A DNA stretch of 64,000 nucleotides from Pacificitalea manganoxidans (GTDB lineage Bacteria > Pseudomonadota > Alphaproteobacteria > Rhodobacterales > Rhodobacteraceae): NCBI RefSeq assembly GCF_002504165.1, contig NZ_CP021404.1:1116001-1180000 (forward strand). The letters are read 5' to 3'. The position numbers were made by a program, and so were the translations under genes. Of this stretch, positions 1-10,614 are shown piece after piece. The notes below the pieces were generated by a model. It saw only the letters and a program-made list of their open reading frames with translations. It did no database searches and was not told the origin of the DNA. Position 1 is the first letter of the stretch. The number at the start of each line of letters is the position of its first letter.

Positions 1-706
1 CGGTGACCGGCTGGCCCGAGATCCGAAGCGCCCCTTCAGCGGGCGTGGCAGGGGTGACCGCGCTGGAGAGGGTGGGCGCGCTGGCCTCCGCAGCAAAGAC
101 CGGATCAACAGCCGCCTGCGCAGACACGCGCGGGGTGGCTGTCGCTGTGCGCGCGTCGACGGGCGCGGGGGCAGCGGAGCGCTCGGCAGGGGCGGCGGAA
201 ATGGGATCAGGCGCCTCCGTCGCTGACAGTTGCGGCAGGGCGCTTGCGGTCGTGGGGAGGGCTGTGGCGGCTGGAAGGACACGCGGCGCGGAGGTGGTGG
301 CAACGGTAACCGAAGCGGCAGCAGACGTGGCCGCGAGGGCAGGGTGGTCAGCGGGCGCTGCGGGAAGAGCGGCTTCGGCGGTGACCACCTCCGCGGGCGT
401 CAGGGCGGCGGGACTGGCGGCGGGGCTGGCCGGGGAACTGGCGGCAGGACTGGCGGCGGGGGCCACCGCGACCGGGGCGTCGGCGGCAGGCTCGGCGCTC
501 AGAATTGCGGGCGCGGCGCGGGGGGTGCTTGTCGCCATGCGGATCTCTTCGACACTGACGCGGGTCTCGACGGGCGGCGGCGGAGCGCTGGGCGTCAACC
601 GAAGCGCAAGCGCCAGCCCCGCCGCATGCACCGTGAGCGCGATCACGATAGAGGCAAGCCACAGCCCCCGGTCGCGGGGCGGCACCTGTGCCAGTGCCGC
701 CGTCAC
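1..706 (-). CDS. TonB-like energy transducer, C-terminus beyond window
   Basis: GTG-started reading frame with no stop before the left edge (about 235 residues seen). Residues 15-37 form one membrane anchor (LWLASIVIALTVHAAGLALA), followed by a very long Ala/Pro-rich stretch typical of the periplasm-spanning part of TonB proteins. The receptor-contacting C-terminal domain would lie outside the window. Its GTG overlaps the stop of the upstream exbD in a GTGA junction, so translation is probably coupled. Being fourth in an exbB-exbD-exbD set supports a role in passing proton-motive force from the inner membrane to an outer-membrane or envelope partner. The partner cannot be told from the sequence. 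The family call rests on architecture and context, not on a seen TonB domain. Confidence 0.75.
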   Translation of the reverse strand, partial: MTAALAQVPPRDRGLWLASIVIALTVHAAGLALALRLTPSAPPPPVETRVSVEEIRMATSTPRAAPAILSAEPAADAPVAVAPAASPAASSPASPAASPAALTPAEVVTAEAALPAAPADHPALAATSAAASVTVATTSAPRVLPAATALPTTASALPQLSATEAPDPISAAPAERSAAPAPVDARTATATPRVSAQAAVDPVFAAEASAPTLSSAVTPATPAEGALRISGQPVT

Positions 707-1125
707 AGGGGGCCTGCCCCGTCTAGGGATGCGCGCAGGGTGACGAGGGTGATCGCCAACCCCGCAGGGCGCAGCGCCTCCACCGTCGCCAGCAGATCCT
801 CGGCGGGCAGATCACGCGGGGCGAGCAGATGCACGGTCGGCAGAGCCTCGCGCGTTTCGGTCAGCCGGGCGAGGGCGGTGGCGCGATCCACCTCGGCCCC
901 GTCGAGCAGCCACCCCCCGCCGGGGGTCAGCACCAGCAGCGGGCGCGGCAGACGTTCAAGCGGCAGATCCTGCGTCACGGCGGGGTCGATGGCCAGTTCA
1001 TCGGTTTCGACAATGGTGCCCACGACCAGAAAGAAAAGCACCAGCAGCAGGACGATATTCACCTGCGCCAGCCCAAAGTCATGGCGCGGCGCTGCGGCGG
1101 GCGGGGCAAGCCGGGCGCGGATCAT
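703..1125 (-). CDS. exbD: ExbD/TolR-type biopolymer transport protein (second copy)
   Basis: A 140-residue protein with a short cytoplasmic N-terminus, one membrane helix (residues about 20-40, VNIVLLLVLFFLVVGTIVET) and a periplasmic domain, as in ExbD/TolR. These proteins form the proton-conducting core with ExbB/TolQ. The usual membrane-embedded Asp of the LTPLxD type is not obvious here: the first part of the helix reads FGLAQVNIVLL. This copy may therefore be divergent or structural rather than proton-conducting. It overlaps the upstream exbD by ATGA (1122-1125) and the downstream tonB by GTGA (703-706). Confidence 0.85.
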   Translation of the reverse strand: MIRARLAPPAAAPRHDFGLAQVNIVLLLVLFFLVVGTIVETDELAIDPAVTQDLPLERLPRPLLVLTPGGGWLLDGAEVDRATALARLTETREALPTVHLLAPRDLPAEDLLATVEALRPAGLAITLVTLRASLDGAGPL

Positions 1126-1739
1126 GGGCGGATCTCGGATGCGGGGGGCGCGGCCAGCCCCCCGGCCATGCCACGCCCCGGACGCGGGATCAGGCGTACG
1201 CGCGGCACCTGCGCCAGACGGGCTTCCTCCAGCACGGTGGCCAGATCCTGTGTGCGGGCGTCGGGCGCGGCAAAGATCATGATCTCCTCGATCCCGTCGC
1301 TGACATGCCGGGCCAGCAGATCGGGCAGGGTCGCGATGGGATGGGACGTGGCGCCTTCGCGGATGCGGCCCGCGGCGACGTGCCAGATCAGACCCCGCGC
1401 GGGGGCGGGCGTGGCCGAGGGCGCCTCATCGCGCGCAGGCGGGGCGCCCGGCGCGTCAGAGGCCGCGGCTGCGCTGAGCGGGACCAGCGCATAGGGCGCC
1501 AGCGTCGTCGACAGCATGAAGAAGATCAGCAATTGGAACATCACATCGGCCAAGGGCGTCAGCGCAAAGACCATCCGCCGGGGCGGGCGGGGATCTGGAA
1601 TGGCGACGGGATGGGTGTCGGTCATGGGTGCGGCGGGCCGCATGTCCAATGGGTCCGGCCGCGGCGGGGCAGGATGGGCGACCGGGCTATCGTGGCCGGG
1701 GTCCACCGTGGGGCCGGGAGGGGATGCACCGGACTGCAT
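1122..1739 (-). CDS. exbD: ExbD/TolR-type biopolymer transport protein (first copy)
   Basis: A 205-residue ExbD-family protein. A Pro-rich N-terminal extension of about 55 residues precedes the helix FALTPLADVMFQLLIFFMLS, which holds the family's conserved Asp (LTPLAD) expected to carry protons. A periplasmic domain of about 120 residues follows. The first ATG lies three bases after the exbB stop. A later ATG (MTDTHPVAIPD) would shorten the N-terminus to a more usual ExbD length, so the start is uncertain. It pairs with the neighbouring exbD that lacks a clear Asp, so the complex could contain two unequal ExbD chains. Confidence 0.9.
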   Translation of the reverse strand: MQSGASPPGPTVDPGHDSPVAHPAPPRPDPLDMRPAAPMTDTHPVAIPDPRPPRRMVFALTPLADVMFQLLIFFMLSTTLAPYALVPLSAAAASDAPGAPPARDEAPSATPAPARGLIWHVAAGRIREGATSHPIATLPDLLARHVSDGIEEIMIFAAPDARTQDLATVLEEARLAQVPRVRLIPRPGRGMAGGLAAPPASEIRP

Positions 1740-1742
1740 GGG

Positions 1743-2444
1743 TCAGGCCCGCGCGGGATGGGACTGCGCGGGATGGGCCATGGGCGGGACAGGCGCGTGG
1801 AGCCCGTCCGCGTGGGGGCCGCCATGCAGCACTGCGGAAATCAGGCTTTCATAGGTTTCCCGCTCGGCAGTGATCCGGCCTTCCAGCCAGATCGCCACGA
1901 AATAGAAGAAAATCGCGATTGCCAGCCCGACGGCGGTGGTGATGAGCGCGGTCCAGATCCCTCCCGCCAGAACCGAGGGGTCCACGGCGCCCGCGGCGCG
2001 CGACAGGCGGCCAAAGGCCTCGATCATGCCGACGACGGTGCCCAACAGGCCCAGCATCGGCGCCGCCTGCACCACGGCCTCCAGCGCGCGCATGCTCCCG
2101 GTCAGGGTCGATAGCTCGTCCAGCGCGGCTTGGGTCGCGCGCTCGCGCACGGCGCCACGGTCATGGGGATGCGCCTGTCGGGCCGCCAAGGTCGCATGCA
2201 GCACCCGCACCGCTGCGCAATCGCGCCGCGCGGCCAGCGCCAGCGCCGCATTCGCGTCTCCGGCCTGCCAGCGGTCCAGCACGGCGCGGGCGGAGCGCCG
2301 CCGCCCCACGCCCAGCCGGGCGAATTGCGCGACCTTATAAAGGCTGACGGTCAGCGCCAGCACCGAAACGGCGGCCAGAACGCCAAGGATGATCCATGCG
2401 TAACTGTCGAGCCCTTGCGGCAGGACGGAGGATAGGGCGGACAT
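1743..2444 (-). CDS. exbB: MotA/TolQ/ExbB proton channel family protein
   Basis: A 233-residue protein with one N-terminal membrane helix (residues about 16-37) and two C-terminal helices in the diagnostic region (AAPMLGLLGTVVGMIEAFG and AVGLAIAIFFYFVAIW), as in ExbB/TolQ. A GGAG ribosome binding site lies just before the ATG. It is the first gene of the tight exbB-exbD-exbD-tonB run, where it would form the proton channel. The last 25 residues are His/Pro-rich and not part of the family fold. No Fur-type box is visible upstream, so iron control is not supported by sequence alone. Confidence 0.92.
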   Translation of the reverse strand: MSALSSVLPQGLDSYAWIILGVLAAVSVLALTVSLYKVAQFARLGVGRRRSARAVLDRWQAGDANAALALAARRDCAAVRVLHATLAARQAHPHDRGAVRERATQAALDELSTLTGSMRALEAVVQAAPMLGLLGTVVGMIEAFGRLSRAAGAVDPSVLAGGIWTALITTAVGLAIAIFFYFVAIWLEGRITAERETYESLISAVLHGGPHADGLHAPVPPMAHPAQSHPARA

Positions 2445-2776
2445 GGCAGGCTCCGGGCTGGGGCGCGGATCGCGGCGTCACGGGCGGGCCTTGGCGGAGG
2501 CCCTTGGCTGCGGACGCGCCGGGGGACACGGGGGGATGAGGCGCGGCAGGCGCGCAGGAGAAAGCGGTGTTGAAAAGCGGCGTGGTCAAATTCGGTGGGC
2601 AGTCAGGCCGCGAAATTGCGGCACGGGCGGGGTGGGTTTCGTGGGGCGTCGGGTAGGCTGGGTCAGGCGGGCGGGTTAGGCGGGTGCGATCACATGGGCG
2701 CGGTCAGGTGGCCGGGGCAGGCGGCGGGGTCTGTCGCCGACACCCCCCAAAGCCGCCCACCCCGTGCAGGCCCGGC
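2445..2776. other. Intergenic region between secreted protein gene and exbB
   Basis: 332 bases with no supportable gene. G-rich on the given strand, with several CCCGCC-like short repeats on the minus strand. It should hold the exbB promoter, but no clear -35/-10 pair, Fur box or T-tailed terminator stands out. Confidence 0.5.
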
Positions 2777-3235
2777 TCAGATCCCGAACTGGATTTCAGC
2801 CCGGCTTGAGGTCACAAGCCCGTCGAGGCAATCGGCCTCCGCGCCGCCTTCTGCCGTGCATTCCGAGACGGAATTGACCAGCAGGCGGGAAATTTCCTCG
2901 CAGCCCATATCGGCCAGATCGAATTGCACGACCTTGGTTTTGCCGTCCTGCAACTCCCCGAATTCGAGGATCAGCAGCCGCGATACGACGCCTTCCTGAT
3001 CGAAGACCGCAACCTCGTAGGAGGTGGTCTCCAGATCGGTGCCGGTGTTGTTGTTGGCGACATAAGTCAGACGGCAGCCTTCGCCCGCGGCGCGGGCATT
3101 GTTCAGCTCCAGTCCGAAATTGGTGGTGTCCTGCGCCATGACCGGCGCGGCGGCGAGCGGCAGGCCAAGCACCCCCGCGCAGAGGGCGGACAGGCGCGTG
3201 GCGCGCGGGCGGCGGTTTGGGTGCGGATGCGGCAT
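2777..3235 (-). CDS. Secreted protein of unknown function
   Basis: 152 residues. The N-terminus has Arg residues, a hydrophobic core and a signal-peptidase-like site (APVMAQ before DTTNF, about residue 34). The mature part of about 118 residues has four Cys (GEGCRLTY, DMGCEEI, SECTAE, ADCLDG), so one or two disulfides are possible in the periplasm. It is encoded in the same direction as, and upstream of, exbB, separated by 332 bases, so membership of that operon is possible but unproven. I do not recognise a named domain. Confidence 0.75.
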   Translation of the reverse strand: MPHPHPNRRPRATRLSALCAGVLGLPLAAAPVMAQDTTNFGLELNNARAAGEGCRLTYVANNNTGTDLETTSYEVAVFDQEGVVSRLLILEFGELQDGKTKVVQFDLADMGCEEISRLLVNSVSECTAEGGAEADCLDGLVTSSRAEIQFGI

Positions 3236-3544
3236 GTTGAAATCTCGTCCCTGTTGAGCCCGAAGAGTTGACTATAGGGAAAGTGCTAACATGACGCCGC
3301 GCTTCGTCAAAGGATAGATGCGGCAGACGCGCAGCGCGGCCCGGCCCCGCCATACCCGGCGCGCAGGCGGGAACGCGAGGTTTGACATTGCGCGCGGAGC
3401 GGTTGTTCTAGGGGGGCGGGCCCAGCGCGGGGCGCCGCGCCGGAAGCGGGACAGGACGTGGCGGAACGGAAGGTGGCGGAACGGGACGTGACGGGACGGG
3501 ACGGGGCAAGGCGACGCCGGGGGCCGCAGCACAGGGCATGGCAC
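3236..3544. other. Divergent intergenic region with G-rich direct repeats
   Basis: 309 bases between divergent genes, which must hold both promoters. On the minus strand a CTATAGT element about 40 bases upstream of the secreted protein gene resembles a -10 box. From about 3456 to 3512 there are repeated units (GTGGCGGAACGG, then GACGGGACGGGAC) without a clear function. A GTG at 3458 stays in frame with the DUF1036 gene. Confidence 0.4.
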
Positions 3545-4030
3545 ATGGGGCCGGGGCGCGGCAGGCACCGACACCGGCGCTGGCAGCAGACCGGGCGGTT
3601 CGGCGCGCGCTGGGCGGCGGCGGTGCTGGCACTGGTCGCCGGGGCCGGGGCAGCGCGGGCGGAGTTCACAATCTGCAACCAGTCCTTTGACGTGGTCAAC
3701 GTCGCCATCGGCGAGGCGGGCGGCGGGCTGGCCTATGGCGGGGGGGAGGAATTCGTTACCCGCGGCTGGTGGACGATCGGCACCAACCAATGCGCCAATG
3801 TCATCCGCGAAGAATTGGTGAACCGCTATATCTACGTCTATGCGGCGGATGTGTTCGGCCAGCCGATCCTTGATGGGTCCGTGCCCATGTGCATCGGCCC
3901 ACGGGCCTTCGAGGTGCGCGGCATCGAGGAATGTTGGCAACGTGGCCATGCCGAGGCGCTGTTTTTCGAGGTGGATACCCGCGCCGTCGCCCGCTGGACG
4001 CTGTTTTTGACCCAACGCGGGCTGGACTAG
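3545..4030 (+). CDS. DUF1036 family secreted or membrane protein
   Basis: From the ATG at 3545 the protein is 161 residues: a basic N-terminus, a hydrophobic segment (AAAVLALVAGAGAARA) that looks like a signal peptide or single anchor ending near residue 39, then a domain starting EFTICNQSFDVVNVAIG. This opening, a Trp-rich centre (RGWWTIG) and paired Cys are characteristic of DUF1036 proteins. A GTG at 3458 would add 29 residues encoded by low-complexity repeats and seems less likely. It is followed in the same direction by the caspase-like gene. Function is unknown in the family. Confidence 0.8.
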   Translation: MGPGRGRHRHRRWQQTGRFGARWAAAVLALVAGAGAARAEFTICNQSFDVVNVAIGEAGGGLAYGGGEEFVTRGWWTIGTNQCANVIREELVNRYIYVYAADVFGQPILDGSVPMCIGPRAFEVRGIEECWQRGHAEALFFEVDTRAVARWTLFLTQRGLD

Positions 4031-4187
4031 CGATTTTTCAGGCGATTTCCTGCCATGCGCGTTCACAATTGACCTTAGGGCTCGGTTTTACGCCCTGCGG
4101 ATGTAGACCGATGCGGCCCCAAGGGGGTATGATCGGGGCATTGAGAGTAGCCTTTTGTTCGTTCCTTTGGATATCCGGACCCGCGCC

Positions 4188-6182
4188 ATGCCCCCCAGGA
4201 TCACCGATTTTACCCGCTTCGCCCTCAATCCCCGTCATCCTGCGCCGCGCCCGTCGGGCAGGCTGTCTGGCAGTCCGGTGCCCCGGGGCGCGGCCTTGCG
4301 CAGGCTGGGCGCGCGTCTGGGCGGCGGTGCGGCGCTGTCGATCATGTTCTGCACCGCGATGGCGGGCACGGCGCAGGCGAAGCGGCTCGCGCTGATCGTC
4401 GGGAACGCTGAATATGACAATGTCTATTCGCTGAAAAACGCCACCAATGACGCCCGCGATGTGGCGGCGGCGCTGGAGCGGCTGGATTTCGAGGTGACGC
4501 TGCTGACCGACATGGACCGCGCCGCGCTGGAGGCGGAGGTCGCGGCATTCGCTGAACGCGCCGATGCGGAGGATGTGGAAAGCACGCTGTTCTTCTTCTC
4601 GGGCCATGCGTTTCAGTTGGACGGGGTGAACTACCTGATGCCGTCCGATGCGGCGCTGAGCGACAAGGCCTCGATCCAGCAGGCGACATGGCGGCTCGAC
4701 GATATCGTGCGGCAGCTGGAGGACCGCAACCGCCAGACGCTGATCTTCCTCGATGCCTGCCGCAACAACCCGCTGCCGGAAAACGCGCGGGCCGGGCAGG
4801 CCGAAGGTCTGGCAAAGATGCAAACCGGATCGGGCACCTTCGTGGCTTTTGCCACCCAGCCCAATAACGTCACCGCCGACGGGGCGGGCGACAACAGCCC
4901 CTTTACCGAGGCGCTGCTGAACCATGTCGAAAGCTCCGGCATCTCGATTTCGGACATGATGATCCGCGTCCGCAACGAGGTCGAAAGCGCCACGTTCGGC
5001 AAGCAGACCCCGTGGGATCAGTCCTCGCTGCGTGCGCAGTTCTATTTCGCGCCACAGGTCGAACGCTCGGCCGAACTGACGGATGCGGATTACGAGATGA
5101 TCGCCGCGCTCGACCCTGAAATTCGCGCCCGGCTGCTGGCCGCACTGGGCAATAGCGGTGTCGCGATCGAAATCGAGGAGGTCGAGGACGAGGTGGAAGC
5201 CAAACGTCTGGCCTCCGTCACCCCCGACTTCATCATCGAAGACCCCGATGCCGATCTGTCCGATCTGGAGGCCGCCGCGGCCGCGCAGGCGGAGGCGGAA
5301 GTGACCCCCGCCGTCGTGGCAGATGCCCCACAGGCCCAACCGGCGGATGTGACGCCGGGCTTTGAGATCGTCGACGTGCCTGAGCCGGAAACGCCGGGCA
5401 CCGCGACGGGCGAGGCCGCAACACAAGTGGCCAGCGCCGAGCGCACCCGCCCCGCGCTGCCGGACGCCGCCGGGGTCACCGCAAACACCGCCGCCACGGG
5501 CATTGCTGGCGCTACGCAGGCAGAACCCGCCACCGCGCAGCCGGGCGAAACCCTGCGTCTGGCCGATGCGCTGCCCGCTGATCCGACCCGCGAGCGGGAG
5601 ATCATGATGACCGGCTCCGGCGAGGAGGCGCTGGTGCTGGCGCATCTGTCGCCGTCCCGGTCGCTGGAGCCGATATTTGAGCCACGATCACGCGTGCCGG
5701 GGGAGGAACTGACCCGCGAGGCCGCCGCTGATGTGGGCATCGACTTGCCCGAGGAGGTCAACGATCTGGAAGGCCGCGAACTGGCTTTGGCCGTGCAGAC
5801 CGAATTGCAGCGGCTGGGATGCTACCGCTCCGGGCTCGACGGGCTATGGGGGCGCGGCTCGGCGCTTGGCATGGCGCGCTACTACGCGACCAAGAAAACG
5901 GCAGCCGCGACGCTGGACCCCTCCATGCAGGTGCTGCGCGTGCTGAAGACCGAACCAAAGGTGGTGTGCGAGGTCGCGGTTGAACAGAAAAACCAGCGCG
6001 TTGCGGCGGTAAAGGCCAAGGTCCGCAAACAGAAGGCCGCAGAGGTGAAAGCCGCCGCGCCCGTGCGCAAGGCCGCCCCCGCCAAGAAAAAGATCACGAT
6101 CCGCGCCGCGCCGACCACCACGACGAATTCCAGCGGTCAGCAGAAAACGATCAAGCGGATGAATACCGGCGTGTTCCGGTAA
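4188..6182 (+). CDS. Secreted caspase-like (C14) cysteine protease
   Basis: 664 residues from the ATG at 4188 (an in-frame TTG at 4155 is an alternative). A signal peptide ends near AGTAQA, then a caspase-fold p20-like domain starts (KRLALIVGNAEYDN). The catalytic dyad is visible: His140 in FFFSGHAF and Cys191 in FLDACRNNP. A long acidic Ala/Pro/Glu-rich middle follows, then near residue 535 a segment resembling a degenerate peptidoglycan-binding repeat (LQRLGCYRSGLDGLWGRGS), and a basic Lys-rich tail. This suggests a periplasmic protease tied to the cell wall. Substrates are unknown. The next gene encodes a peptidoglycan hydrolase, which fits an envelope role. Confidence 0.88.
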   Translation: MPPRITDFTRFALNPRHPAPRPSGRLSGSPVPRGAALRRLGARLGGGAALSIMFCTAMAGTAQAKRLALIVGNAEYDNVYSLKNATNDARDVAAALERLDFEVTLLTDMDRAALEAEVAAFAERADAEDVESTLFFFSGHAFQLDGVNYLMPSDAALSDKASIQQATWRLDDIVRQLEDRNRQTLIFLDACRNNPLPENARAGQAEGLAKMQTGSGTFVAFATQPNNVTADGAGDNSPFTEALLNHVESSGISISDMMIRVRNEVESATFGKQTPWDQSSLRAQFYFAPQVERSAELTDADYEMIAALDPEIRARLLAALGNSGVAIEIEEVEDEVEAKRLASVTPDFIIEDPDADLSDLEAAAAAQAEAEVTPAVVADAPQAQPADVTPGFEIVDVPEPETPGTATGEAATQVASAERTRPALPDAAGVTANTAATGIAGATQAEPATAQPGETLRLADALPADPTREREIMMTGSGEEALVLAHLSPSRSLEPIFEPRSRVPGEELTREAAADVGIDLPEEVNDLEGRELALAVQTELQRLGCYRSGLDGLWGRGSALGMARYYATKKTAAATLDPSMQVLRVLKTEPKVVCEVAVEQKNQRVAAVKAKVRKQKAAEVKAAAPVRKAAPAKKKITIRAAPTTTTNSSGQQKTIKRMNTGVFR

Positions 6183-6334
6183 CGGACGCGAAGCCACCGC
6201 GCGGGGCCGAGGATGGCCGCGCCGGTGACGTGACGAGTTGGGGATGAGTGTGTGCGACCCTGCCGACAGTCCAGCCAGACCCGCGCCCCGTGACCGGCGG
6301 ATGACACCGGCTGCGCGCCGGGGCTGAGGTCGCG

Positions 6335-8698
6335 ATGCAGGATGTCGATCCCCGCTTTCACAAACACAAGGCCCGCGCCGCGCGCCGCCGCCGTCGGGCC
6401 GGTCTGACGCGGCTGGGCTGGCCGCTGCTGGCGCTCGCCGTGCTGGGCGGGCTGGGGGCCGGTCTGTGGCTAACGCGGGCGCAATGGAGCTTTGGCCCCG
6501 TCGAGATCGCGGAGGAGGATCTGGCGGAGGATCTGGTCGCGTTCGAGGATGAGGCCGCGCAAACCTCCGCCGCCTTTGCCGCCGCTTTCATCGACATTCC
6601 CGGCGATCCGCTGTTGATCCGGCTGGAGACGGCCGACACGGCCCGGACCACGCGCAAACTGACCCCGCCGGAGGGCTTCGCCCCCGCCCGCGCCACAGCG
6701 GAATTGCTGCTGGTCGAGGATGTGATGGTCAGTTCCGAGGAGCGCTTCATCACGACATTGCCCTCCAGTCAGGAGGATTTCGCGTTCTTTCAGGCGCAGA
6801 AAACGGGAGGCGGCGCGGTAGTGCCGGAACGCGCCGATGTGGCGGAGGCGGTGCTGGCGGATGTCGAGGATGGCGACACGCCCACCACCGAGACGCCCGC
6901 CACTGACACTGACCCGCCCGACGCCACACCAGACCCCGACCTTGCGCTTGGCGATGATGCGGGCGGCTGGGGCGAAACGCTCGACAACCGGACCGAAGCC
7001 TTGCCGGGGTTCGAAAAGACCCGCATCGAAAACACGACCTCCATCGCCTTTGTCCGCGATGAACAGCGCAGGCGCCCAGCCTATAACGATATTTTCGTGC
7101 GGATCTCGGCGCGGCGGGACGTGGCCGGGCTGCTGACCGATAACGGCTTTGACGCGGAGGAGGCCGCGACGGTCGCGACCTCTGCCAAGGATATCCTCGC
7201 GTTGGAGACGCTGGAGCCCGGCCATGTCGTCGCGCTGCGGGGGCGGCCCGGCGCGGATGGCAAACGCCGCTTCGTGCAGATGTCGGTCTATGGCGCCGAC
7301 ACGTATCACGGAACGCTCGGCGTGTCCGATGCGGGCGATCTGGGGCTGGCCACGGACCCGTGGGTCGCAGATGAGCTGTTCGACTACACCGGCACCGAAC
7401 AGGAAGAAGTCACCGCCGGTCAGAAATACCGGATGCTGGATGCGTTCTATTCCACCGCGATCCGCAACCGGGTGCCCGCGATTGTGGTGGGGGAGGCGAT
7501 CTCGCTTCTGTCGAAGGCGCATGATCTGGATGCCTTCGCCAATCCCGGCGACCGTATGGTGCTGCTCTATGCGCCGGAACGGGGGGAGGCGGCCAGCGGC
7601 GCGGCGCAGCTTTACTATATCGGGCTGAAGGGCGCGTCGGTGGATGTGGATTGCTTCGTCTTCGCGGGCGGCGACGATTACGCCTGTTTCGGCGCGAAGC
7701 CGGGGCAGGGCGGCAGCGGTGGTGGCACCGTGGGGGGGATGGTGACGCCGGTAAAGGGCGTGCTGACCTCGCGCTTTGGCCCCCGCACCCATCCGGTTCT
7801 GAAAACCGTGCGCGTGCACAAGGGCGTCGACTGGGCCGCGCCCACCGGCACCCCCATTCACGCGGCTTTTGACGGGCGTGTCAGCTATGCGGGCGACGGG
7901 CGCGGCTATGGCAATCTGGTGAAGCTGACCCATGCCAACGGGTTCGAGACCCGCTATGCGCATATGTCCCGGTTCGGCACCCAGACCGGCGCGCAGGTGC
8001 GGGCGGGCGATGTGATCGGCTATGTCGGGACGACCGGCCTGTCCACCGGGCCGCATCTGCATTTCGAAATGTATCTCGACGGGCAGGCCATCGACCCGTT
8101 CGCAGCCGCCGCCCCGCCCGCGCAGGGCGATCCGGGCGCAGCGGCGGTGGAGGTGCTGGTGGCGCAGATCATCAAGGTCGAAAGCGCAGGCAACGCCCAT
8201 GCCAAGAACCCGCTATCGACTGCCACCGGGCTGGGCCAGTTCATCGAAAGCACATGGATCCGCATGATGCGCACCTACCGCCCCGATTTGGTGGCGCAAC
8301 TGGGCCGGGTGGAATTGCTGGCACTGCGCACCGATCCCACCATCAGCCGGGAGATGGTCAAGAACCTCGCACGGGAAGGCGAAAGCTATCTGCGCGCGCG
8401 CGGGCATGCGATCACGGCTGGGCGGCTTTACCTGTGCCATTTTCTGGGGGCCGAAGGGGCGCATCTGGTCCTGTCCTCGCCGGATGAGGCGCCGCTCATC
8501 AATGTGCTGGGCGGGGGCGTGATCCGCGCCAATCCGTTCCTGCGCGGCAAAACGGTCGCCTACGTCAAACAATGGGCCGAGAAGAAGATGACCGGACGCG
8601 GGCAGACCGCCATCGCCGTCGCACCGCCCGTGGTGCGCGAGCCCGCCGGGCTCGCCGATTTCCGCCAGCAGGTGCGCGCGCTGATCGGGCAGGGCTGA
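6335..8698 (+). CDS. Membrane-anchored M23 endopeptidase fused to transglycosylase-like domain
   Basis: 787 residues. An Arg-rich cytoplasmic N-terminus and one membrane helix (about residues 28-46) are followed by about 430 periplasmic residues without a recognised fold. Next comes a LytM/M23 metallopeptidase domain with zinc motifs His495-x3-Asp499 (HKGVDW) and His574-x-His576 (HLHFEM). The C-terminal part (residues about 605-750) looks like a soluble-transglycosylase fold, with candidate catalytic Glu616 in IIKVESAGNAHAKN and TATGLGQFIESTWIRMM. It could cleave both peptide crosslinks and glycan strands of peptidoglycan. It lies between the caspase-like gene and an ABC-F gene, all in the same direction. 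Confidence 0.88.
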   Translation: MQDVDPRFHKHKARAARRRRRAGLTRLGWPLLALAVLGGLGAGLWLTRAQWSFGPVEIAEEDLAEDLVAFEDEAAQTSAAFAAAFIDIPGDPLLIRLETADTARTTRKLTPPEGFAPARATAELLLVEDVMVSSEERFITTLPSSQEDFAFFQAQKTGGGAVVPERADVAEAVLADVEDGDTPTTETPATDTDPPDATPDPDLALGDDAGGWGETLDNRTEALPGFEKTRIENTTSIAFVRDEQRRRPAYNDIFVRISARRDVAGLLTDNGFDAEEAATVATSAKDILALETLEPGHVVALRGRPGADGKRRFVQMSVYGADTYHGTLGVSDAGDLGLATDPWVADELFDYTGTEQEEVTAGQKYRMLDAFYSTAIRNRVPAIVVGEAISLLSKAHDLDAFANPGDRMVLLYAPERGEAASGAAQLYYIGLKGASVDVDCFVFAGGDDYACFGAKPGQGGSGGGTVGGMVTPVKGVLTSRFGPRTHPVLKTVRVHKGVDWAAPTGTPIHAAFDGRVSYAGDGRGYGNLVKLTHANGFETRYAHMSRFGTQTGAQVRAGDVIGYVGTTGLSTGPHLHFEMYLDGQAIDPFAAAAPPAQGDPGAAAVEVLVAQIIKVESAGNAHAKNPLSTATGLGQFIESTWIRMMRTYRPDLVAQLGRVELLALRTDPTISREMVKNLAREGESYLRARGHAITAGRLYLCHFLGAEGAHLVLSSPDEAPLINVLGGGVIRANPFLRGKTVAYVKQWAEKKMTGRGQTAIAVAPPVVREPAGLADFRQQVRALIGQG

Positions 8699-8775
8699 GA
8701 CAGCGGTGACGCTCGTCTGCCTGCCCCATGCAGCGCCGCTTGACCTCCTCCCATCCGCAGAGTAGCCCGCGCATC

Positions 8776-10614
8776 ATGGCGCGCGCACCCCTTCTCCAGC
8801 TTTCCGACATCTCGCTCACCTTTGGTGGGGAGCCTGTCTTCCGTGACCTCGACCTTGTGGTCCAACCCGGTGATCGGGTGGCATTGGTGGGGCGTAACGG
8901 CTCTGGCAAATCCACCTTGATGAAGGTGATGGCCGCGCTCGTCGAACCCGATCAGGGCATCCGTGTCGTGCCGCCGGGCATCACCGTGGGCTACATGGAA
9001 CAGGAACCCACGATGGAAGGCTTTGCGACGCTGGGCGACTTTGCCGCGTCGCAGCTGGATATCGGAGAAGAATACCGCGTGGCGATGGTCGCCGATGGTC
9101 TGAAATTCGATCCCGACACCCCCGTGGCCACCGCTTCGGGCGGGGAGCGGCGGCGCGCGGCGCTGGCCAAGCTGCTGGCCGAAGATCCCGAATTGATGCT
9201 GCTCGACGAGCCGACGAACCACCTCGATATCGAAGCGATCGCATGGCTGGAAGAACAGCTTGCCTCGACCCGTTCGGGCTATGTGCTGATCTCCCACGAC
9301 CGGGCATTTCTCAGCCGCCTGACCCGCGCGACCCTGTGGATCGACCGGGGGCAGGTGCGGCGGCAGGAGGCCGGGTTCGAGGCGTTCGAAACATGGCGCG
9401 ATAAGGTCTGGGCCGACGAGGACGACGCCCGCCATAAGATGGACCGCAAGATCAAGGCCGAAGCCCGCTGGGCCGTCGAAGGCATCTCTGCCCGGCGCAA
9501 GCGCAATCAGGGCCGTGTGCGGGCGTTGCAGGATCTGCGGGCCGAGCGGTCTTCGATGATCCGGCGGCAGGGCACGGCGGATCTGGCGCTGGAGGCAGGG
9601 CAAACCTCGGGCAAGCTGGTGGCCGAGGCGACCGAGATCGGCAAACGCTACGGCGATAAGGTCATTCTGCGCGACTTTTCGATCAAGGTGCTGCGCGGCG
9701 ACCGGGTGGCCTTTGTCGGGCCGAACGGCGCAGGTAAAACGACATTGCTGAAAATGCTGACCGGCGAGGTCGAGCCTGACAGCGGCAGCATCCGACGCGG
9801 CACCAATTTGGAACTTGCGGTGTTCGATCAGACCCGCGCGCAGCTCGACCCTGATGCGTCGCTGTGGGAAAACCTGACCGGCGATCCCCTGATGCGCATT
9901 TCGGGGCAGGCCGATCAGGTCATGGTGCGCGGCACCCCGCGCCATGTGGTGGGCTATCTGAAGGATTTCCTGTTTGACGAACGGCAGGCCCGCGCGCCGG
10001 TGCGGTCGCTGTCGGGGGGCGAAAAGGCGCGGCTGCTGCTGGCCCGGCTGATGGCGCAGCCCTCGAACCTGCTGGTGCTGGATGAGCCGACCAACGATCT
10101 GGACATCGAAACGCTGGATCTGTTGCAGGATCTGTTGGGCGATTACGATGGCACCGTGCTGCTGGTGAGCCACGACCGCGATTTTCTCGACCGGGTGGCG
10201 ACGACCACCGTGGCGATGGAGGGCGACGGCGAAGCGACGGTCTATGCGGGCGGGTGGAGCGATTATCGCAGCCAGCGCGCCGGAAGCCGGGCGGAACCCA
10301 AGGTCGAGGCCAAGCCTGCGCCAGCGGCAGGGAAACCCGGTAAGACGGCACAGAAACCCGCCGAAACCCCGGTGGCCGCCCCGGCGAAGGGGCTGAGCTT
10401 TACCGAAAAGCACCGGCTGGAAGAATTGCCCGGCGTGATCGAACGGCTTGGTGCCGAAATCGCCAAACTGGAGCAGTTGATGGCCGATCCGGAGCTGTTT
10501 TCGCGCGAACCCGTCAAATTCCGCAAGGCGACCGAGGCGCTGAGCGCGCGGCAGGCCGCCTTGGCCGAAGCCGAAGACGAATGGCTGGAGCTGGAAGAGC
10601 GCGCGGCTGGCTGA
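8776..10614 (+). CDS. uup: ABC-F family ATPase, Uup type
   Basis: 612 residues from the ATG at 8776; an upstream in-frame ATG at 8728 adds 16 atypical residues. There are two ATP-binding domains without membrane helices. Walker A is at residues 39-46 (GRNGSGKS) and 315-322 (GPNGAGKT). Signature motifs are SGGERRRAALA and LSGGEKARLLL, and Walker B motifs end in DEPTNHLD and DEPTNDLD. The C-terminal 75 residues are a charged coiled coil (LSFTEKHRLEELP onward), the mark of Uup rather than EttA. Uup proteins act on ribosomes or nucleic acid and affect excision of transposons. The role here is inferred from the family. Confidence 0.87.
   Translation: MARAPLLQLSDISLTFGGEPVFRDLDLVVQPGDRVALVGRNGSGKSTLMKVMAALVEPDQGIRVVPPGITVGYMEQEPTMEGFATLGDFAASQLDIGEEYRVAMVADGLKFDPDTPVATASGGERRRAALAKLLAEDPELMLLDEPTNHLDIEAIAWLEEQLASTRSGYVLISHDRAFLSRLTRATLWIDRGQVRRQEAGFEAFETWRDKVWADEDDARHKMDRKIKAEARWAVEGISARRKRNQGRVRALQDLRAERSSMIRRQGTADLALEAGQTSGKLVAEATEIGKRYGDKVILRDFSIKVLRGDRVAFVGPNGAGKTTLLKMLTGEVEPDSGSIRRGTNLELAVFDQTRAQLDPDASLWENLTGDPLMRISGQADQVMVRGTPRHVVGYLKDFLFDERQARAPVRSLSGGEKARLLLARLMAQPSNLLVLDEPTNDLDIETLDLLQDLLGDYDGTVLLVSHDRDFLDRVATTTVAMEGDGEATVYAGGWSDYRSQRAGSRAEPKVEAKPAPAAGKPGKTAQKPAETPVAAPAKGLSFTEKHRLEELPGVIERLGAEIAKLEQLMADPELFSREPVKFRKATEALSARQAALAEAEDEWLELEERAAG

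What the first reader, a model, noticed from the sequence alone, without database searches (positions are those of the whole stretch)
1..8698. Proton-driven ExbB/ExbD/ExbD/TonB set facing a DUF1036, caspase and wall-hydrolase run
The exb set has two unlike ExbD chains, only one with the expected membrane Asp. Directly opposite are a DUF1036 protein, an exported caspase-like protease with a peptidoglycan-binding-like repeat, and a dual wall hydrolase. No TonB-dependent receptor is seen. Together they could form an energised envelope-remodelling or proteolysis module rather than an iron uptake system. This is a guess from position.
Basis: inference. Interest (0 to 1): 0.55.

Follow-up and report, generated by a model that had tools for sequence, protein, structure and literature searches.

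The report
Proton-driven partner of bacterial injection machine
A set of genes that looks like an iron-uptake energiser lying next to a caspase and a cell-wall cutter is instead, across many relatives, a travelling companion of the type VI secretion 'harpoon', and may be the proton-powered part that tells it when or where to fire.

Summary
The genes are there, but two labels and the context change. The 'TonB' ends outside the window in a domain that is not TonB's: it is homologous to the periplasmic end of the type VI secretion (T6SS) kinase PpkA. A small secreted gene at 2777-3235 was missed. In 394 family genomes, the module's ExbB (28) or its M23 hydrolase (28; 34 genomes in all) occurs only in the 101 genomes with T6SS; in 18 of 28 the ExbB lies within 10 kb of TssM, usually with TonBx tail-to-tail with PpkA. 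The same T6SS type carries the PpkA end domain and a giant autotransporter that other T6SSs mostly lack. ExbD-1 always has the membrane Asp, ExbD-2 always Asn. The caspase is intact in 13 of 34 genomes; its peptidoglycan-binding tail is kept in 31. I read it as a proton-driven envelope module of one T6SS type, most likely an input to PpkA (inferred), alternatively a wall-opening motor. I found no report of it in the searches made.

The parts
2..706 (-). TonBx: TonB-like arm, first 235 of 591 residues (membrane anchor and Ala/Pro-rich linker). It continues past the window start to G000:C1:1114931, where its PpkA-type end domain lies
   Evidence: no Pfam family on the whole protein; TM 17-35
703..1125 (-). 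ExbD-b: second ExbD, Asn in place of the membrane Asp
   Evidence: PF02472 32.5 bits; Asn in 21 of 21 aligned chains, the window's included
1122..1739 (-). ExbD-a: first ExbD, with the membrane Asp
   Evidence: PF02472 36.5 bits; Asp in 21 of 21 aligned chains, the window's included
1743..2444 (-). ExbB proton-channel subunit of the T6SS-linked clade
   Evidence: PF01618 93 bits; module profile separates it from siderophore-type ExbB (1e-93 against 1e-42 to 1e-47)
2777..3235 (-).
   Evidence: no Pfam or NCBIfam family; in 32 of 34 module genomes; AlphaFold2 pLDDT 93.4
3458..4030 (+). DUF1036 secreted protein (start uncertain: GTG 3458 or in-frame ATG 3545)
   Evidence: PF06282 101.6 bits; in 26 of 34 module genomes
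4155..6182 (+). Caspase-like (C14) protein with intact SGH/DACR dyad and a peptidoglycan-binding-like tail (start codon uncertain)
   Evidence: PF00656 132.5 bits
6335..8698 (+). M23 endopeptidase with a borderline SLT-like domain, one N-terminal membrane anchor
   Evidence: PF01551 122.8 bits; SLT 19.5 bits, under cut-off; TM 27-45

Best explanation
A proton-driven accessory module of one type VI secretion (T6SS) type in Rhodobacteraceae. Shown by comparison: the genes belong with that T6SS. Inferred: ExbB with an Asp-bearing and an Asn-bearing ExbD forms an asymmetric proton motor that moves the TonB-like arm, TonBx. TonBx ends in the same two-cysteine domain as the periplasmic end of the kinase PpkA, so both probably contact the same periplasmic partner (Small, the PG-binding/caspase protein, DUF1036) or each other. 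The motor would thereby work as an input to PpkA/PppA phospho-control, perhaps relaying contact sensed by a giant autotransporter in the same cluster, while the M23/SLT enzyme opens the wall for the needle. The role TagQRST plays for PpkA in Pseudomonas (recalled) would be filled here by a proton-powered set.
For: All 34 genomes with module ExbB or M23 are among the 101 of 394 with TssM (chance 6e-23 if genomes were independent). ExbB is within 7-10 kb of TssM in 18 of 28. TonBx is tail-to-tail with the PpkA-type gene in 20 of 27 (not in the window genome). The TonBx and PpkA end domains are homologous (hhalign probability 99.6, E 1e-24). The domain occurs in 33 of 34 module genomes (on a kinase-sized ORF in 30) against 2 of 36 other T6SS genomes. 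Autotransporter barrel in 12 of 13 module against 0 of 13 other T6SS genomes. Where the module is remote from TssM in G026, G174 and G390 it still sits with PppA, PpkA and the autotransporter. On the TssM tree the ExbB label needs 6 changes (at least 3 on well-supported branches) against 20 when shuffled.
Against: No functional data. In the window's own genome the module and the PpkA-type gene are about 140 kb apart. 67 of 101 T6SS genomes have neither marker, so the machine does not need the module in general. Six genomes keep the M23 half and PpkA's end domain without a module ExbB. Shared domain and neighbourhood do not show contact between TonBx and PpkA. All evidence is from one family, so events are fewer than genomes.
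Confidence: 0.5

Rival explanations
1. A Tol-like wall and outer-membrane remodelling motor for the T6SS: ExbB/ExbD/ExbD pull through TonBx on PG-binding proteins so that the M23/SLT enzyme opens a gap for the needle or anchors the basal complex. PpkA is only a neighbour.
For: M23/SLT, PG-binding-like tail and an OmpA-like protein belong to these clusters. The module is never found with TssJ (0 of 34).
Against: TssJ is also absent in 27 of 36 other T6SS genomes, so the module does not simply replace it. Six ExbB genomes have no M23 relative at E 1e-60. It does not explain the domain shared with PpkA.
Confidence: 0.27
2. Gene neighbours without a shared function: the set was captured in a T6SS island and carried along.
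For: Single family; part of the pattern is shared ancestry.
Against: The TssM tree needs 3 to 6 gains or losses of the set, always inside T6SS genomes; PppA/PpkA and the module stay together when away from TssM; the arm ends in the kinase's type of domain.
Confidence: 0.1
3. A TonB-type uptake system (iron, haem or other).
For: ExbB, ExbD pair and Small have counterparts in siderophore-type sets.
Against: The end domain is not TonB's; module-type loci show T6SS genes and no receptor, while the siderophore type has a separate ExbB clade.
Confidence: 0.03
4. The first reader's free-standing proteolysis or envelope-remodelling module.
For: Window caspase has an intact dyad; M23 present.
Against: Dyad intact in only 13 of 34 genomes, domain absent in G081; all 34 genomes have T6SS.
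Confidence: 0.05
5. An anti-phage defence set (Zorya-like motor plus caspase).
For: Weak PADLOC matches: ZorA2 21.7 bits, caspase 44.6 bits.
Against: ZorA2 curated score 700 against 21 found; no other of the 8 proteins matched a defence model; T6SS linkage.
Confidence: 0.02

Closest known systems
TonB-ExbB-ExbD (Ton) energiser, alphaproteobacterial siderophore type with Small and two ExbD
   Same: ExbB, Asp/Asn ExbD pair, Small, one-TM arm with Pro/Ala-rich linker; same gene order
   Different: Arm ends in the PpkA-type domain, not TonB's; no receptor; T6SS neighbours
T6SS threonine-phosphorylation pathway PpkA/PppA/TagH(Fha)/TagF, with TagQRST as its envelope input in Pseudomonas aeruginosa (TagQRST recalled)
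   Same: PpkA-type kinase, PP2C phosphatase, FHA protein and TagF are in these clusters
   Different: A proton motor sits where an envelope input would be expected; TagQRST itself was not searched for
Tol-Pal (TolQRA-TolB-Pal)
   Same: Motor family and PG-facing partners
   Different: Scores far under the TolQ and TolR cut-offs (50.5 against 221; 17 against 127.3); the genome has a separate tolQR-like set
Myxococcus AglRQS gliding motor
   Same: One MotA/ExbB-like and two ExbD-like chains (PMC9120999, passages read; PMC3169522, passages read)
   Different: No T6SS link; whether AglS keeps an Asp was not found in the passages read

Membership tests
Ton system | ExbB proton-channel subunit | tested here: met
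   PF01618 93 bits, cut-off 22.9
Ton system | ExbD with the membrane Asp | tested here: met
   PF02472 over cut-off for both; Asp only in 1122-1739
Ton system | TonB C-terminal domain | tested here: not met
   591-aa protein: no Pfam family up to E 0.1; end domain homologous to PpkA's
Ton system | Energises a TonB-dependent receptor | not testable with these tools
   no receptor near the module; function needs experiment
T6SS accessory module | Occurs only with T6SS | tested here: met
   34 of 34 in the 101 TssM genomes of 394
T6SS accessory module | Encoded in or beside the T6SS cluster | tested here: met
   ExbB within 10 kb of TssM in 18 of 28; not in the window genome (147 kb), G299 or G174
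T6SS accessory module | Needed for T6SS function | not testable with these tools
   experiment required
Tol-Pal | TolQ equivalog score | tested here: not met
   50.5 bits against 221
Zorya defence system | ZorA2 equivalog score | tested here: not met
   21 bits against 700
Peptidase C14 (caspase) | Caspase domain with His and Cys | tested here: met
   132.5 bits, cut-off 21.4; SGH and DACR present in the window protein
Peptidase M23 | M23 domain | tested here: met
   122.8 bits, cut-off 28.7
SLT transglycosylase | SLT domain | tested here: inconclusive
   19.5 bits, cut-off 21.3
IrmA-like fold (Small) | Same fold | tested here: inconclusive
   best match 5ek5_A Z 10.9, rmsd 3.2, 107 aligned, 9% identity; Foldseek E 7.7e-4

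The most novel reading that the evidence does not exclude
A proton-powered contact sensor for type VI secretion: a giant surface autotransporter, periplasmic partners and an ExbB/ExbD(Asp)/ExbD(Asn) motor whose arm carries the kinase's own sensor domain, so that mechanical work across the envelope switches the PpkA kinase and fires the T6SS.
Probability: 0.25. Interest if true: 0.93.

Novelty: new variant of a known kind. Interest (0 to 1): 0.7.

Why it matters
How a T6SS knows when to fire, and how it passes the wall, are open questions. This would add an energised envelope motor to one T6SS type, with a clear genetic test. It also points to a two-ExbD motor with only one proton-carrying Asp: D25N makes E. 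coli ExbD inactive (PMC11658791, passage read), yet here the Asn copy is a conserved second chain, which bears on how ExbB-ExbD turns protons into motion.

Tried and rejected
Search with the TonBx end domain alone: 10 of 149 genomes, including T6SS kinases, which gave the T6SS lead.

TssJ replacement idea: rejected, since most T6SS genomes without the module lack TssJ too.

Sequence search of the end domain and of Small against PDB: nothing convincing. Fold search of the end domain: only an Ig-like sandwich for residues 88-210, Z up to 8.8 at 2.8 A over 98 residues, a common arrangement; residues 1-87 were not tested apart. A search for the peptidoglycan-binding block in PDB gave a spore cortex-lytic enzyme at E 0.12 only. 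The autotransporter barrel profile matched no PDB chain.

Spread beyond the family: the ExbB clade and the PpkA-type domain were found only in G000 among 250 class genomes (2 other same-family genomes seen in the listing).

Literature: searches gave no paper on an ExbB/ExbD set, DUF1036 or caspase in a Rhodobacteraceae T6SS. PMC4337385 (two passages read) treats T6SS in Roseobacter relatives and does not contain TonB or ExbB. PMC9120999, PMC3169522 and PMC11658791 were read as passages. In PMC5903867 only a reference-list match was seen. All other papers were seen as search listings only. Most subscription journals and all preprints are not held.

Rows dropped: L106 from the end-domain alignment A2 (its last 222 residues were out of frame); L138, L147 and L153 from the Small alignment A3 (49 of 52 possible rows used); two genome-contig loci without ExbD hits from the Asp/Asn count (78 of 80 counted). 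The profile iteration drifted for TonBx and PpkA over their linkers; the cut domains replace it. Only 70 of the 101 T6SS genomes were given, and 60 TssM rows (59 genomes). In one search four rows have very long branches, one of which (G247, no module) falls among module rows.
Full report
What is there. Facing them on the plus strand are DUF1036, a caspase-like protein and an M23 protein. An ABC-F ATPase of the Uup kind follows at 8728-10614. All curated Pfam matches named here are over cut-off except the SLT half of the hydrolase. The window is G000:C1:1116001-1180000.

The 'TonB'. Reading on outside the window gives a 591-aa protein: one membrane helix, a long Ala/Pro-rich linker and an end domain of about 215 residues. 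No Pfam family matches it up to E 0.1. The end domain found, in other genomes, partners beside ExbB sets and also the ends of Ser/Thr kinases that follow TssM, TagF and a PP2C phosphatase. Profiles cut to the end domains alone find each other (E 1e-13 to 1e-31 in a small set; hhalign probability 99.6, E 1e-24). Both kinds share two invariant cysteines. The kinase of this genome has one membrane helix before the domain, so both domains should face the periplasm (inferred). AlphaFold2 gives a confident model (pLDDT 93.8): an alpha/beta part and an Ig-like sandwich.

Link to type VI secretion. I searched the same 394 family genomes three times. The M23 protein (E up to 1e-60) is in 28, module-type ExbB (E up to 1e-60) in 28, and TssM in 101. 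The 34 genomes with either marker are all among the 101; if genomes were independent, chance would be 6e-23. They are not independent, so I built a TssM tree of 60 rows: the ExbB label needs 6 changes, at least 3 forced by well-supported branches, against 20 for shuffled labels; the six genomes that have the other half without ExbB form one supported clade. In 18 of 28 genomes ExbB lies 7-10 kb from TssM; in three on the same contig it is far (147 kb in the window's genome, 1.16 Mb in G299, 2.56 Mb in G174); in seven it is on another contig, several of them short. In the usual layout the module is inside the cluster: ClpV, then M23, PG-binding/caspase and DUF1036 facing Small, ExbB, ExbD-a, ExbD-b, TonBx, then tail-to-tail PpkA, PppA, TagF, TssM. 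TonBx and PpkA are tail-to-tail in 20 of 27 genomes with TonBx (and for the window genome). Pfam and NCBIfam name the T6SS parts of this genome: TssF, an Hcp-like protein (under its cut-off), TssC, TssB, TssA (under its cut-off), TagH, TssK, a PP2C phosphatase and a kinase; TssM by its Pfam domain; TssL, TssE, TagF and VgrG were matched by similarity.

A T6SS type with shared marks. Of 70 T6SS genomes searched (34 with the module, 36 of the other 67), the PpkA-type end domain is in 33 of 34 and in 2 of 36. Three of the 33 (G147, G165, G375, incomplete or broken assemblies) show it only on TonBx, so the kinase-sized form is in 30 of 34. A giant secreted protein (about 700-3200 aa, G/T/A-rich, some cut at contig ends) with a shared C-terminal barrel lies near TssM: it is in 12 of 13 module genomes not used for its profile and in 0 of 13 other T6SS genomes, 5-9 kb from TssM in 11 of the 12. 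Six of 11 profile members match Pfam's autotransporter domain, best E 2.7e-17. In G026, G174 and G390 the unit autotransporter, PppA, PpkA, module, PG-binding/caspase lies away from TssM as a block. This is the main reason for preferring an input to the kinase over a pure wall motor. TssJ is absent in all 34 module genomes but also in 27 of 36 others.

Which parts are constant. In the 34 genomes, counted in the fetched stretches: Small 32, ExbB 28, ExbD-a 28, ExbD-b 28, TonBx 27, DUF1036 26, PG-binding-type protein 31, M23 28, intact caspase dyad 13 (some stretches end at contig ends). So the caspase is an optional front part of a PG-binding-type protein: in G056 the fold is degenerate and in G081 only the tail is left. 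Many of these proteins end in a short Gly-x-Phe-Arg-like tail. The six ExbB genomes without M23 also lack DUF1036 in the stretch read.

The ExbD pair. In 21 of 21 aligned module pairs the first chain has Asp and the second Asn at the same membrane position. In the 80 ExbB loci, most of them siderophore type, 75 of 78 with ExbD hits read Asp/Asn, two Asp/Asp, one Asp/Ser. So the asymmetry is wider than the T6SS module. The E. coli change D25N inactivates ExbD (PMC11658791, passage read); here Asn is the natural state of one chain. A hetero-pair with one proton-carrying Asp is the simple reading (inferred).

Origin. Of the 80 loci, ten (L105-L114) are module type, from Rhodobacteraceae named Vannielia, Tateyamaria, Sulfitobacter noctilucae, Jannaschia marina, Rhodovulum kholense and unnamed isolates; most others carry ExbB of the siderophore clade, often with Small and a TonB. 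The simplest story (inferred): a Ton-type set with Small was taken into a T6SS cluster and its arm received the kinase's end domain, or the reverse. Outside the family neither the ExbB clade nor the end domain was found: among 250 class genomes only G000 matched.

How it may work and what is not shown. Shown: co-occurrence, neighbourhood, domain homology, conserved Asp/Asn. Inferred: that the three kinds of membrane protein form one motor, that TonBx is its arm, that it acts on PpkA or its partner, and that the autotransporter is the outer sensor. The wall-motor rival keeps 0.27. In this organism the claim rests on relatives, because module and T6SS are apart.

Novelty. The parts are known kinds; their union was not found in the ten literature searches listed under Tried and rejected. 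I file it as a new variant of T6SS envelope accessories rather than as a Ton system, because the TonB end-domain test was not met.

Noticed in passing
window 2777-3235; L015:4174-4701 and 6323-6790; 51 of 80 loci: Small is an unnamed secreted protein family (four invariant Cys) next to ExbB in many alphaproteobacterial Ton-type sets, so it may be an overlooked general Ton component.
   Followed up: partly
80 loci: Asp/Asn pair of ExbD chains in 75 of 78 loci, also in siderophore-type sets.
   Followed up: partly
L086:12746-19678 and counterparts in L023, L024, L027, L087, L088, L089, L091, L093, L094, L095, L098, L114: Giant autotransporter-like proteins inside T6SS clusters, absent from 13 of 13 other T6SS genomes tested.
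   Followed up: partly
caspase slot, window 4155-6182 and relatives: Row from active caspase to degenerate caspase to no caspase in one gene slot, with the PG-binding-like tail and often a Gly-x-Phe-Arg-like C-terminus kept.
   Followed up: partly
L015 and L016 (contig C2, 175 kb): Two further ExbB/ExbD/ExbD/TonB sets; one beside an NRPS-like end and a receptor-like gene, with two Small copies (by sequence look).
   Followed up: no
L027 (G131): T6SS with PpkA-type end domain and autotransporter but no module ExbB in the 394-genome search: a possible intermediate.
   Followed up: no
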